A stretch of DNA of 64,000 bases from Halorientalis persicus. Lineage in GTDB: Archaea; Halobacteriota; Halobacteria; Halobacteriales; Haloarculaceae. The DNA is taken from NCBI RefSeq assembly GCF_900110215.1, contig NZ_FOCX01000011.1:62001-126000 (forward strand). Direction: 5' to 3'. The stretch's first letter is position 1. Every line of letters begins with the position of its first letter. The position numbers were made by a program, and so were the translations under genes. A model generated the notes under the pieces. That model was not told the DNA's origin, made no database searches, and saw only the letters and a program-made list of their open reading frames with translations. Positions 56,570 to 60,401 of this stretch are shown one piece after another.

Positions 56570-58210
56570 TCAGTCCCGTTCCGCCGAGTCCGACTCCCCG
56601 AGCGCCTGCGTCGTCACGTCCTCGGGCATCTCCGGGCGGTCCGGCGCGTCCCGTGACTCGGGCGTCTCGGGCGTCTCGTAGACGCCGGCGGCCGTCTCGA
56701 CGACGACTTCGATGGGCAGGACTTCCCGGCAGAAGTCGACGCCGAAGGGCGTCAGGTGGATGCTCCGGCGGATCAGCTTTGCGCGTTTGGCCGCCTCGAT
56801 GGCCTCCTGGACGTCGGGCTGGGCCTGCAGGATCTGGTACTCGTTCAGGTCCTCGACCGGCTCGTCGGAGAACCAGATCAGACCCAGTCGCTTGAGGTTG
56901 TTCAGGTAGGCGTGAACCCGGTCGAGGTGTTGACAGCCCGCCTCGTTGCCGATCATCGTCAGCCCGGCCGCCACGAGCTCGGAGTTGATCGGCACCCAGC
57001 CCACGTCGCGCACGTCCATCGAGGGCTGGCGACCCTCGGTGGCAAGCAGGCGGAGGATGCGCACTTCGTCGGGTGCCACCTGATCGAGGATCGACGCGTA
57101 CGCGGGGTGGACTTCCTCGACGTAATCCACGTCGGCGGACGCCTCCATCAGGCGCGCGCCGCGCCGTCGCAGTCGGTCCCGGTCGGCTGGGAGCGAGGAT
57201 GTCGGACGGTCGACCTCCGGCTCGTCGTTGTCCGCGGGCGTCTCGACGCCGAGCCGATCCAGTTCGTCGAGCGTGATCGACCGCACCTCCTCGACCATGT
57301 CGACCATCGACTCCGACGTGGCCGCGGCCCGCACCAGCCGCGGGCCGGTCCGTACCCCCGACCGGACGGAGTAGCCCGTCGACCGCTGGAGGGCGGCCGC
57401 CCCGATCCGGGCGACCCGGAACGAGTCGTCGAGGTCGCTCGGCGTCGACAGCGACGGGTGATCGCCCTCGTCGAGATCCGGCGGCGAGAACTTGTCTTCC
57501 TCGATCTCGTCCGGGTTCAGCAGGTGTGACATCACCCTGTCGACGGACGAGAGTGTGTCCCCCGAGTCCGTCGCCGGGTCCGCCATGTCGGCGACGGCCT
57601 CGTCGAGCGAGCCGACCAGTTCGTCGGTATCGACCGACGGGTCCAGCAGGCTCGTGACCGTCGAGTCTAGCGTCGAGAACACCTCTTCGGAGTCCCCCGA
57701 GGGATCTGTCAGCGTCGCGAGGGCGGCGTCGAACATCGTAAAGGCCTCCTCGATGCCCTCCTCGGCGACGGTCGGATCGGTCATCGCAGACTCGATCACC
57801 GAGAGCACGCCGTCGGTCCGGGTCGCCGAGGACCCCGTCGGGTCGACGATGGCCGTACTCAGCACCGACAGCGCCTCCTCGGTGGCGTCGGGATCGACCG
57901 GATCGATGATCGTCGACTCCAGTACCGAGAGGAGTCGCTCGGTCTCGCCGGGGGAAAGCGGCGTCGGTGTGACGATCGACGCCTCCAGCACGTCGAGCAA
58001 CTGATCGACCTGGTCCTGTCCGAGGTCGCGCTCGGTCGTGGCCACGTCGAGGACGTCGAACAGCTGGACGACCGACGACGGATCGAGGGCGTCGGTGGTG
58101 TCCGCAGTCCCCTCTGTTTCGCGTGCGATCTCCGACACCCAGTCGTCGCTGTTCCCCCCTTCTGGCTCGGAATCGCCCGGTCTCCGTTCGCTGTCGTTGA
58201 ACTCGCTCAT
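56570..58210 (-). CDS. Abi-alpha (DUF4393) family protein with N-terminal repeat array
   Basis: 546 residues. Residues ~48-236 form about seven or eight imperfect units of 25-30 residues with consensus 'LSVLES-I-DP', for example 'LLDVLEASIV', 'LLSVLESTII', 'ALSVLSTAIV', 'VLSVIESAMT'. A central segment follows, then the C-terminal domain (~400-520) with 'VAPDEVRILRLLATEGRQPSMDVRDVG', 'YLNNLKRLGLIWFSDE' and 'HLTPFGVDFCREVLPIE', which I identify as DUF4393/Abi-alpha. Bacterial relatives occur in abortive-infection contexts, so defence is a possibility. The start overlaps the stop of the DUF445 gene (ATGA). Confidence 0.65.
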   Translation of the reverse strand: MSEFNDSERRPGDSEPEGGNSDDWVSEIARETEGTADTTDALDPSSVVQLFDVLDVATTERDLGQDQVDQLLDVLEASIVTPTPLSPGETERLLSVLESTIIDPVDPDATEEALSVLSTAIVDPTGSSATRTDGVLSVIESAMTDPTVAEEGIEEAFTMFDAALATLTDPSGDSEEVFSTLDSTVTSLLDPSVDTDELVGSLDEAVADMADPATDSGDTLSSVDRVMSHLLNPDEIEEDKFSPPDLDEGDHPSLSTPSDLDDSFRVARIGAAALQRSTGYSVRSGVRTGPRLVRAAATSESMVDMVEEVRSITLDELDRLGVETPADNDEPEVDRPTSSLPADRDRLRRRGARLMEASADVDYVEEVHPAYASILDQVAPDEVRILRLLATEGRQPSMDVRDVGWVPINSELVAAGLTMIGNEAGCQHLDRVHAYLNNLKRLGLIWFSDEPVEDLNEYQILQAQPDVQEAIEAAKRAKLIRRSIHLTPFGVDFCREVLPIEVVVETAAGVYETPETPESRDAPDRPEMPEDVTTQALGESDSAERD

Positions 58211-59523
58211 ATTGGCACCGTGGTTACCACCAGTAGCTGGATCCACCCGGCAACGAACCCGAGAGCCGCTCCGATACCGATGAGCAGCCACTCATCTTCT
58301 TTGAAAGCAGAACGTAGCGTCATGGTAAAGTCTTGCGGGGGGAGTTCCTGCATCCGGCTCGCGATCAGTTCCTTGACCGGAATAGACCGCTCGCGGTTGA
58401 ACTCGGTGTCCTGTAACGGCTCCAGCGCGTACTCGACGCCCTCGGTCGCCAGCGCGTCGCGAATCTCCTCGTAGCGCCGATCACCCGTCGCGACGCGGAT
58501 GACCGGTGCGGCCATCCCCAGTGCCTCGTCCAGCGAGGGCCGGATCGCGTCTTCGATCATCCGTCGAGTCCGGTCGGACCGTTTCCCGTACAGCAGGTTC
58601 TGGGCGACGTTTTCGACGGTGATGATCTCCTCGGCGACGATCTCGCCGTACCGTTCGGCCACCTCCTCCTGACGCTGGATGAACAGGCCCTGGAGCGTGA
58701 ACGGGCCGATCTCGACGGGCTCCTGTGGGTTGAAGATCGCCTTGATCGCGATGTAGTTGGTGAAATAGCCCACGAGAACGCCCGACACCGGCAGGACCCA
58801 CCACGCCCGATCGAAAAACAGGAACAGCGGGATCGAGAACACGCCAAGTAGCGTCCCGAAATAAAACCCGGAGTTGACGAGAAACGACAGTTCCTCATCG
58901 CCGACCTCCAGAAACATCCGATTGAGCAACTCGGGATGGTTGTCGAGGTAGTCGATGACCATCAGCTTGAGGCTCAACACCTCGTCGATGTTCTCGGCCG
59001 TCGACTGCATGATCCGGTCGGCCACTTCCGGGAGCTGCTGTTCGATCCGTGCGTGGACGAACTGCCGTGCGCCGTCGGGAACGGAGTTCCAGACGACCGG
59101 CTGTTCCCGGCCCAGCAGATCGTCCACGTACGCGTGGAAGTTGTCGCGGGACTGGGCGACCATGTGCTGGGCGATCCGGTCGGGGTCGAGCCGCTCGTAG
59201 AACTCCTGTTGGCTCGCCAGTTTCGCGATCGAGGCGTCGTAGGCGACACTCCCCATCTTCGCCGACCGTGAGGGGATGATCCCCTGCCACCCGACCTTGC
59301 CCTCCATCACGCCGGGGATCTGCTGGATCTTTCTCGGGAGCATCGGGGCCAGTTGCTTCAGGCCCGGCATCTTGAATCCGCGGAACTCGAGCGGGTGAAA
59401 GAGCAGTCTGATCCCGACCCAGTTGGTGACGTATCCGATGATTCCGGTGATCGGCGGGATCAGTACCAGATTCCACTGGAGCGGCGGGAGCGACGCCAGT
59501 ATCCAGTCGAGCGACGGGATCAT
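58207..59523 (-). CDS. DUF445 membrane protein
   Basis: 438 residues with membrane spans near both ends and in the middle, and two DUF445 half-motifs: 'ITGIIGYVTNWVGIRLLFHPLEFRG' (about residue 26-50) and 'GVLVGYFTNYIAIKAIFNPQEP' (about residue 245-266). Between them are helical soluble segments ('DRIMQSTAENIDEVLSLKLMVIDYL'). DUF445 proteins are of unknown function. Coupled to the Abi-alpha gene by ATGA, so the two products are probably needed together at the membrane. Confidence 0.85.
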   Translation of the reverse strand: MIPSLDWILASLPPLQWNLVLIPPITGIIGYVTNWVGIRLLFHPLEFRGFKMPGLKQLAPMLPRKIQQIPGVMEGKVGWQGIIPSRSAKMGSVAYDASIAKLASQQEFYERLDPDRIAQHMVAQSRDNFHAYVDDLLGREQPVVWNSVPDGARQFVHARIEQQLPEVADRIMQSTAENIDEVLSLKLMVIDYLDNHPELLNRMFLEVGDEELSFLVNSGFYFGTLLGVFSIPLFLFFDRAWWVLPVSGVLVGYFTNYIAIKAIFNPQEPVEIGPFTLQGLFIQRQEEVAERYGEIVAEEIITVENVAQNLLYGKRSDRTRRMIEDAIRPSLDEALGMAAPVIRVATGDRRYEEIRDALATEGVEYALEPLQDTEFNRERSIPVKELIASRMQELPPQDFTMTLRSAFKEDEWLLIGIGAALGFVAGWIQLLVVTTVPI

Positions 59524-59729: not shown

Positions 59730-60401
59730 TCAGGCTTCGGCGGTGTCGTCGTCGTCCTCGGCGCTGACCTCGTCGGGCAGTTCCTCGAACTGCTCCTGGA
59801 GGTCGTCGACCTGCTCACGGTAGCGGTCGATCTGGTCGCCCAGCGCTTCCTCGAACTCCTCGGCCTGTTCCTCGAAGCGGCCGCCGAGGTCCTCGGCCTG
59901 CTCGCTGACCTCGTCCTGGAGTTCCTCGAACTGGTCGATCAGTTCGTTGAGGGCGTCGACGGTCTGCTCCTCGACGGTCTCGTTGGCGTCGATCAGGACC
60001 TCGAACTGCTTGTCGATGATCTCGAGGGTCTGGTCGAGCTGTTCCTCGTAGAGGTCGAGCGTGTCCTCGTAGCTCTCGTCGATGCTGTCGAGTGCCTGCT
60101 CGTGCTGGTCGAGCAGCTCCTCGAAGCCTTCGTCGACGGCCTCGCGGATGTCCTCGACCGTCTGCTCGCCCTGTTCGGGCGTCGCCGACTCGACGGTGTC
60201 GAGCAGTTGATCGATGGTGTCCTGGACGAACTTGACGGTGTCCTGCTGGGCCTTCTTCTGGTCGCCGATGGTGCCGTGGAGCGACTCGTTGGCCGCTTTC
60301 GGAACCTTGAGCGTCTGCTCGATGACGTCCTGTCCGGTCTCGATTGTCCGACGCTGCACCTCGAAGATCGTGCCGATCGGTGAGTTGTCGTCTTCGCTCA
60401 T
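59730..60401 (-). CDS. Long coiled-coil protein, possibly phasin-like
   Basis: 223 residues, nearly all predicted coiled coil, very rich in Glu/Gln/Asp with heptad hydrophobics ('LDLYEEQLDQTLEIIDKQFEVLIDANETVEEQTVDALNELIDQ'). The N-terminus 'SPIGTIFEVQRRTIETGQDVIEQTLKVP' resembles the start of haloarchaeal PHA-granule phasins as I remember them, but no pha gene is in the window. A structural or scaffold role is the safest reading. It lies 206 bp upstream of DUF445 on the same strand. Confidence 0.6.
   Translation of the reverse strand: MSEDDNSPIGTIFEVQRRTIETGQDVIEQTLKVPKAANESLHGTIGDQKKAQQDTVKFVQDTIDQLLDTVESATPEQGEQTVEDIREAVDEGFEELLDQHEQALDSIDESYEDTLDLYEEQLDQTLEIIDKQFEVLIDANETVEEQTVDALNELIDQFEELQDEVSEQAEDLGGRFEEQAEEFEEALGDQIDRYREQVDDLQEQFEELPDEVSAEDDDDTAEA

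What the first reader, a model, noticed from the sequence alone, without database searches (positions are those of the whole stretch)
56570..59523. Coupled DUF4393 (Abi-alpha) and DUF445 membrane gene pair with a repeat-array sensor-like N-terminus
Seen: the two genes overlap by ATGA; the DUF4393 protein carries seven to eight short helical repeats before its Abi-alpha domain. Known: DUF4393 relatives occur in abortive-infection contexts; DUF445 is an uncharacterised membrane family. Inferred: a two-component membrane-linked stress or phage response in which the repeats bind a partner. I know of no described system with this pairing.
Basis: partly seen in the sequence, partly recalled or inferred. 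Interest (0 to 1): 0.65.

Follow-up and report, generated by a model that had tools for sequence, protein, structure and literature searches.

The report
Membrane gene pair beside a phasin
Two overlapping genes, one for a membrane protein and one for a protein usually labelled 'phage-abortive', form a unit kept together across haloarchaea and several bacterial phyla; in haloarchaea it usually sits beside a storage-granule coat protein, so it looks like a membrane or storage-granule stress module and not an antivirus system.

Summary
DUF445 (58207-59523, minus) and an Abi_alpha/DUF4393 protein (56570-58210, minus) overlap by ATGA; the latter has about nine 21-residue helical repeats. The pair is real and undescribed in the literature searched. 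In Halobacteriales it is rare (10 of 195 genomes) but always together. It also occurs in Actinomycetota, Chloroflexota and Pseudomonadota: 50 of 51 testable bacterial relatives have Abi_alpha adjacent, as do 10 of 10 housekeeping-type Abi_alpha loci in 396 Actinomycetota genomes. Haloarchaea probably gained both genes once, from bacteria.

Phage defence is not supported. Paired loci lie among housekeeping genes: the dnaK-hspR-clpB heat-shock locus in Nocardioidaceae, and in haloarchaea a third gene (window 59730-60401), a paralogue of the PHA-granule phasin PhaP. In many relatives that phasin has the tandem-repeat promoter of phaRP, and in two an adjacent phaR copy. Only solo Abi_alpha genes lie in defence-like islands.

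Best reading (mechanism inferred): a four-helix membrane protein recruits a winged-helix partner; in haloarchaea the partner's acidic repeats dock a phasin, linking polymer or lipid surfaces to the membrane. A membrane-held transcription factor is the main rival.

The parts
58207..59523 (-). DUF445 gene (438 aa): predicted four TM helices (about residues 17-42, 212-236, 243-264, 408-435) in two duplicated halves, each followed or preceded by a long helical lobe
   Evidence: PF04286 53.9 bits; AlphaFold2 mean pLDDT 74.7; hydropathy, and half-versus-half alignment score 72 against a shuffle maximum of 57
56570..58210 (-). Abi_alpha (DUF4393) gene, 546 aa, start overlapping the DUF445 stop by ATGA (58207-58210)
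   Evidence: PF14337 143 bits; PADLOC PDC-S47 54.8 bits; sequence
57518..58081 (-). array of about nine acidic helical repeats of about 21 residues (residues 44-231 of Abi_alpha)
   Evidence: self-similarity at offsets 21 and 42 against shuffles; nine predicted helices
57311..57385 (-). conserved cationic amphipathic helix (about residues 276-300 of Abi_alpha)
   Evidence: highest hydrophobic moment in the protein, 0.70, net charge +4; conserved in the alignment
56726..57199 (-). Abi_alpha domain (residues 338-495): winged-helix fold with a two-helix insertion where the wing would be
   Evidence: PF14337; 3h35 Z 14.1 over 133 residues, MarR-type regulators Z about 8; secondary structure
59730..60401 (-). 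phasin (PhaP) paralogue, 223 aa, usual third gene of the haloarchaeal locus
   Evidence: linked in about 25 haloarchaeal loci; same family as the phaP of the phaR-phaP-phaE-phaC operon of the same genome
59524..59729 (-). 206-bp spacer between phasin paralogue and DUF445; no shared operator recognised

Best explanation
DUF445 and Abi_alpha form an old two-protein unit at the cytoplasmic membrane that belongs to general or stress physiology, not to antiviral immunity. SHOWN by sequence: translational coupling, near-obligate adjacency across several phyla, joint inheritance, a DUF445 with four predicted TM helices, and a winged-helix Abi_alpha domain preceded by a cationic amphipathic helix. SHOWN by context: the heat-shock locus in Nocardioidaceae; in haloarchaea a PhaP-type phasin, in many relatives under a phaRP-type promoter. 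INFERRED: DUF445 anchors Abi_alpha to the membrane, through the amphipathic helix and/or the winged-helix domain used as a protein-binding module; the complex responds to, or organises, exposed hydrophobic surfaces (stressed membrane, aggregates, storage polymer). In haloarchaea the acidic repeat array added to Abi_alpha docks the phasin coat, so that PHA granules or nascent polymer are held at, or handed over from, the membrane. I put 'not a defence system' at about 0.85 and the phasin-docking step at about 0.25; the confidence given here is for the membrane-complex reading as a whole.
For: Strict pairing: 10 of 195 genomes each, the same 10, 11 of 11 places adjacent; 33 and 32 of 146 in the family, the mismatch being a contig end. 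Bacteria: 50 of 51 testable relatives adjacent; unbiased Actinomycetota sample 10 of 10 housekeeping-type loci. One joint acquisition by haloarchaea, distance correlation 0.91. Housekeeping neighbours, no diagnostic defence genes. Heat-shock locus with HspR operators before dnaK and clpB in Nocardioidaceae. Phasin paralogue beside the pair; phaRP-type promoter motif in 9 of 16 representative loci above 95% of controls, and a phaR paralogue in two. In one genome Abi_alpha has lost its adjacent DUF445 but a solo DUF445 persists elsewhere.
Against: No physical interaction or phenotype is shown. Heat-shock linkage is confined to one bacterial clade and phasin linkage to one haloarchaeal clade. Several haloarchaeal loci (families f9 and f5; L025, L058, L066, L068, L073, L079, L081) have no phasin beside the pair. 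The window's own phasin promoter does not pass the motif test (5.8 bits, exceeded by 10% of controls). Other phasin paralogues sit among menaquinone genes (L100, L103), so the family is not purely PHA-related. No HspR operator lies directly before DUF445. DUF445 has no solved relative.
Confidence: 0.45

Rival explanations
1. Membrane-sequestered transcription factor: the winged-helix Abi_alpha protein binds DNA, and DUF445 holds it at the membrane until a membrane or polymer signal releases it, for instance to control the divergent phasin gene.
For: MarR-type winged-helix fold at Z about 8; phasin and DUF445-Abi_alpha divergent in 20 of 25 loci, a usual layout for regulator and target.
Against: Where the wing would be, the model has a two-helix insertion; no shared operator in the phasin-DUF445 spacers; the motif found there is that of PhaR; the strongest structural match, 3h35, has no known function.
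Confidence: 0.27
2. Abortive-infection or other antiviral system: Abi_alpha senses infection and DUF445 mediates membrane damage.
For: PF14337 is the family of E. faecalis AbiAlpha, shown to cause early lysis of phage-infected cells (PMC6356687); PADLOC PDC-S47 match of 54.8 bits; patchy distribution in haloarchaea.
Against: Neighbours of paired loci are housekeeping genes, unlike those of solo Abi_alpha; stable place within genera and joint vertical descent; no relative in viral contigs; heat-shock and phasin contexts.
Confidence: 0.1
3. Lipid or polymer transfer device: DUF445 works like the TTYH proteins, unloading lipid from a particle coated by an apolipoprotein-like phasin.
For: The first eight Foldseek matches of the DUF445 model in PDB are TTYH structures (best E 1.1e-3); the phasin paralogue matches the Pfam apolipoprotein model below its cut-off (36 bits); TTYH2 accelerates lipid transfer from APOE particles (PMC12328215).
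Against: The structural match is not significant: TM about 0.2, VIA-align Z 3.4 among many unrelated helical membrane proteins; coiled-coil proteins match apolipoproteins by composition; bacterial loci show no such carrier beside the pair.
Confidence: 0.08

Closest known systems
AbiAlpha (EF2833) of Enterococcus faecalis V583 prophage 6 (PF14337/DUF4393; PADLOC candidate PDC-S47)
   Same: Same Pfam domain; the paper also notes similarity to PDB 3H35, the best structural match here.
   Different: AbiAlpha is a single 272-aa prophage gene; the window protein is DUF445-coupled, 546 aa, carries a repeat array and lies among housekeeping genes.
DUF445 membrane proteins (PF04286; present in E. coli and B. 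subtilis)
   Same: Same family, over the Pfam cut-off.
   Different: Belongs to a subfamily almost always paired with Abi_alpha; E. coli, B. subtilis and the other control genomes have no PF14337 match at all.
Haloarchaeal phasin locus phaR-phaP-phaE-phaC (Haloferax mediterranei type)
   Same: Third gene is a PhaP paralogue; many relatives have a phaRP-type tandem-repeat promoter and two have a phaR paralogue.
   Different: No PHA synthase genes at the locus; a membrane protein and an Abi_alpha protein instead; the window's own promoter does not pass the motif test.
HspR-controlled dnaK operon and clpB of actinobacteria
   Same: In Nocardioidaceae the pair lies downstream of hspR on the same strand, with clpB nearby.
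   Different: No HspR operator directly before DUF445; no such context in haloarchaea or in the other bacterial loci.

Membership tests
Abortive-infection AbiAlpha system | PF14337 domain | tested here: met
   143 bits, cut-off 29
Abortive-infection AbiAlpha system | works as a single gene | tested here: not met
   gene layout only: coupled to DUF445 by ATGA overlap and kept with it across phyla
Abortive-infection AbiAlpha system | lies in a prophage or defence island | tested here: not met
   housekeeping neighbours, generic PADLOC matches only
Abortive-infection AbiAlpha system | kills or lyses infected cells early | not testable with these tools
   needs infection assays
DUF445 (PF04286) | match over the family cut-off | tested here: met
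   53.9 bits against 33.8
Haloarchaeal phasin PhaP (window 59730-60401) | homology to the phaP gene of a phaR-phaP-phaE-phaC operon | tested here: met
   profile of linked copies hits the canonical phaP of the same genome at 163 bits; operon confirmed by PhaC and PhaE profiles
Haloarchaeal phasin PhaP (window 59730-60401) | own position beside phaE and phaC | tested here: not met
   window copy lies beside DUF445; canonical copy is elsewhere in the genome
Haloarchaeal phasin PhaP (window 59730-60401) | phaRP-type tandem-repeat promoter | tested here: inconclusive
   window copy 5.8 bits, not significant; 9 of 16 representative loci pass
Haloarchaeal phasin PhaP (window 59730-60401) | sits on PHA granules | not testable with these tools
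   needs microscopy or granule proteomics
HspR heat-shock regulon | linkage to dnaK-hspR or clpB | tested here: not met
   met in Nocardioidaceae, not at the window locus
MarR-like DNA-binding regulator | winged-helix fold with DNA-binding wing | tested here: inconclusive
   fold Z about 8, wing replaced by a two-helix insertion in the model
TTYH lipid-transfer proteins | TTYH fold | tested here: inconclusive
   Foldseek E 1.1e-3 but TM about 0.2; VIA-align Z 3.4

The most novel reading that the evidence does not exclude
DUF445 and Abi_alpha form a dedicated membrane docking station; in haloarchaea it captures phasin-coated PHA granules or nascent polymer through the acidic repeats of Abi_alpha, and in bacteria it serves the heat-shock machinery at the membrane: a conserved membrane-to-inclusion tether shared by archaea and bacteria.
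Probability: 0.2. Interest if true: 0.8.

Novelty: categorically new. Interest (0 to 1): 0.58.

Why it matters
Both families are catalogued but poorly understood; the pairing gives each a functional partner and two strong leads (heat-shock locus, PHA phasin) that can be tested in tractable organisms. It also warns that defence scans which call every Abi_alpha/PDC-S47 hit antiviral will probably mislabel the DUF445-coupled clade: in the samples read here, solo genes had defence-like neighbours and coupled ones did not. If the phasin link is functional, it names membrane partners for PHA granules in archaea.

Tried and rejected
The first Pfam scan of the Abi_alpha protein used a frame shifted by one base and found nothing (protein 1); corrected. 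TTYH/APOE analogy: suggestive names, not significant structurally. A shared operator in the phasin-DUF445 spacers: no k-mer above the null. A strict link of repeats to an adjacent phasin: only 20 of 24 against 4 of 11, p = 0.015, confounded by kinship. HspR operator directly before DUF445: none. Viral contigs: no relative. Plasmids: 11 records, several of them chromosome-sized, some with the pair. Acinetobacter DUF445 (L187, L188) has no recognisable Abi_alpha beside it. Solo Abi_alpha in three genomes of other classes of the phylum (family f19): no DUF445 in those genomes. Not pursued for lack of quota: PHA-synthase co-occurrence across the order, and a full PF14337 tree separating solo from coupled clades. 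Literature was searched only in the held open-access library, so 'undescribed' is limited to that; the original H. mediterranei PhaP and PhaR papers are not held.

Full report
OBSERVATION. DUF445 runs 59523 to 58207 and Abi_alpha 58210 to 56570, both on the minus strand, sharing ATGA. Pfam gives PF04286 at 53.9 bits and PF14337 at 143 bits for residues 338-495. The N-terminal array is genuine: period 21 (and 42), self-similarity far above 500 shuffles, nine units, nine predicted helices. Residues 1-255 hold 64 acidic and 8 basic residues; haloarchaeal proteins are acidic in general, so this alone is not remarkable. The own genome has one copy of each gene.

HOW CONSERVED IS THE PAIR. In 195 Halobacteriales genomes PF14337 occurs in 10, and a DUF445 like this one in the same 10, with all 11 places adjacent. 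In 146 genomes of the family the counts are 33 and 32; the single mismatch is a contig that ends inside Abi_alpha. One genome, G254 (its solo-DUF445 contig matches Halorientalis salina by length and place, L108), keeps Abi_alpha with its phasin but has lost the adjacent DUF445, and carries a solo DUF445 on another contig. The 4-base overlap is kept in 31 of 34 haloarchaeal pairs. A scan of the species-genome collection with the DUF445 alignment found 382 relatives; the 80 best include Halorientalis at 95% identity, other haloarchaea, and 52 bacterial loci at 41-52% identity. Of the bacterial loci with enough flank, 50 of 51 carry Abi_alpha directly beside DUF445; the exception is L134, and L135 is cut by the contig end.

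Because those loci were chosen by similarity to the coupled DUF445, I also took a sample that does not depend on DUF445: 396 Actinomycetota genomes searched for PF14337 alone gave 13 positive genomes. All ten loci of the chromosomal type (L191-L200) have DUF445 adjacent, two of them with an Abi_alpha on each side of it, as in Nocardia farcinica. One of the ten (L193) is also in the similarity-chosen set. Marinobacter and Tsukamurella plasmids carry the pair too. Trees of 79 pairs place all haloarchaea in one clade for each gene (support 1.0 and 0.999), and the two distance matrices correlate at 0.91. The simplest reading is one transfer of the intact pair from bacteria, then diversification. 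The correlation is not corrected for species kinship, and the direction rests on haloarchaea forming a single clade beside a wider bacterial spread.

WHAT LIES AROUND IT. The most telling neighbour was not in the finding. The gene just upstream (59730-60401) recurs beside the pair in about 25 haloarchaeal loci from several genera and different chromosomal contexts, divergent from DUF445 in 20 and on the same strand in 5. It belongs to the haloarchaeal PhaP family: a profile of the linked copies finds members in 138 of 146 family genomes, and the own genome's second copy (G000:C50, L094) lies in a textbook phaR-phaP-phaE-phaC operon, with PhaC matching TIGR01836 at 387.9 bits and PhaE matching PF09712 at 58.7 bits. 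PhaP is the main granule phasin of Haloferax mediterranei (PMC10948481), and the phaRP promoter there has four tandem repeats thought to bind PhaR (PMC9049629).

I built a matrix from the promoters of seven phaR genes (a tandem WTGGYATCAR-ATGGTANCAA element) and tested it on the linked phasins: 9 of 16 representative loci exceed 95% of 220 intergenic controls and 8 exceed 99%, against a mean of 1.2 loci for column-shuffled matrices (the largest of 60 gave 7). The motif was first noticed by eye in some of the test promoters, so the test is not fully blind, although the matrix was trained only on phaR promoters; some representative loci are also related to each other. In two loci (L075, L083) a phaR paralogue stands beside the phasin, with the motif upstream of it. 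The window's own copy does not pass (5.8 bits).

In bacteria the pair has other neighbours. In 16 loci, all Nocardioidaceae or close relatives, dnaK-grpE-dnaJ-hspR lies just upstream, and clpB is nearby in 15. Strong HspR operators (TTGAGY-N7-ACTCAA, PMC2687793) stand before dnaK and before clpB but not between hspR and DUF445, so membership of the regulon would need read-through from the dnaK promoter. A second, more distant DUF445 of Tsukamurella stands directly before groES-groEL, without Abi_alpha, and one haloarchaeal pair (L032) is next to an Hsp20 gene. These last two are single cases.

IS IT DEFENCE. The name comes from E. faecalis AbiAlpha, a single 272-aa prophage gene that makes infected cells lyse early (PMC6356687). 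I scanned 143 neighbours of 28 paired loci against PADLOC: the matches are generic (oxidoreductase, helicase and ABC-type families), with no restriction-modification enzyme; one weak match each to Cas3-like and DinG helicase models is of the same generic kind (Pfam). The 52 neighbours of seven unpaired Abi_alpha loci (L090-L093 from other classes of the phylum, actinobacterial L201-L203) include a type I methyltransferase (E 5.6e-218), a SIR2-type protein and candidate-defence proteins. So Abi_alpha seems to lead two lives, solo in defence-like surroundings and DUF445-coupled in housekeeping surroundings. The sample of solo loci is small, three of those hits are weak, and the phenotype of coupled loci is untested.

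STRUCTURE. The Abi_alpha domain model matches 3h35 (Alcanivorax ABO_0056, function unknown) at Z 14.1 over 133 residues and, well below, MarR-type winged-helix regulators at Z about 8. Where a DNA-binding wing would be, the model has a two-helix insertion. In front of the domain lies a cationic amphipathic helix; a similar one is seen in some bacterial partners such as L132 and L146. DUF445 is predicted with four TM helices in two duplicated halves and two long helical lobes; no solved relative was found. Weak matches to TTYH lipid-transfer proteins are not significant.

MECHANISM. Committed reading: a membrane complex in which DUF445 is the anchor and Abi_alpha the soluble, surface-seeking partner, serving membrane or proteostatic stress in bacteria and, in haloarchaea, coupled to phasin-coated surfaces. 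Steps shown: gene coupling, co-inheritance, contexts, predicted folds, promoter motif in relatives. Steps inferred: physical contact of the two proteins, the side of the membrane on which the lobes lie, docking of the phasin by the repeats, any effect on PHA. The main rival is a membrane-held transcription factor. The chief points against my reading are that both functional hints come from single clades and that phasin paralogues also occur among menaquinone genes (L100, L103).

NOVELTY. I rate the unit categorically new only in the sense that no described system I could find contains this pairing; both families are catalogued, and the literature search covered an open-access library only. It fails the test for membership of an abortive-infection system on gene layout and context, although its domain is of that family.

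Noticed in passing
L085:7473-12074 (G292, genus g4): Three tandem DUF445 genes without Abi_alpha beside them, in a genome that also has a normal DUF445-Abi_alpha pair; solo DUF445 copies also in G288, G289, G300 and G254.
   Followed up: partly
L062:9075-11594 and L088:8139-9530 (G254): Abi_alpha and phasin remain together while the DUF445 between them is missing; a solo DUF445 lies on another contig.
   Followed up: partly
L189:4893-8162; L196; L197: One DUF445 flanked by two Abi_alpha genes (Nocardia farcinica and two sampled genomes), suggesting two partner variants per membrane protein.
   Followed up: no
L190:4941-8489: A distant DUF445 directly upstream of groES-groEL on a Tsukamurella plasmid, without Abi_alpha.
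   Followed up: no
L100:8231-8926 and L103:1585-2262: Phasin paralogues lying among what read as menaquinone biosynthesis genes (menD, menB and menA-like by sequence; not profile-tested), hinting at membrane or lipid roles beyond PHA.
   Followed up: no
L096:1964-2999 (G254:C16): A second phaR-phaP pair without phaE or phaC beside it, with the tandem-repeat motif upstream of its phaR.
   Followed up: partly
L202, L203: Weak solo PF14337 matches beside SIR2-type and type I restriction-modification genes; PADLOC calls the coupled and solo kinds by the same candidate name PDC-S47.
   Followed up: partly
window:49084-53293 (-): A MoxR-type AAA ATPase gene followed by two overlapping genes (356 and 727 aa), which looks like a common MoxR operon and is conserved in place in related genomes; only the MoxR ATPase was profile-tested.
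   Followed up: no
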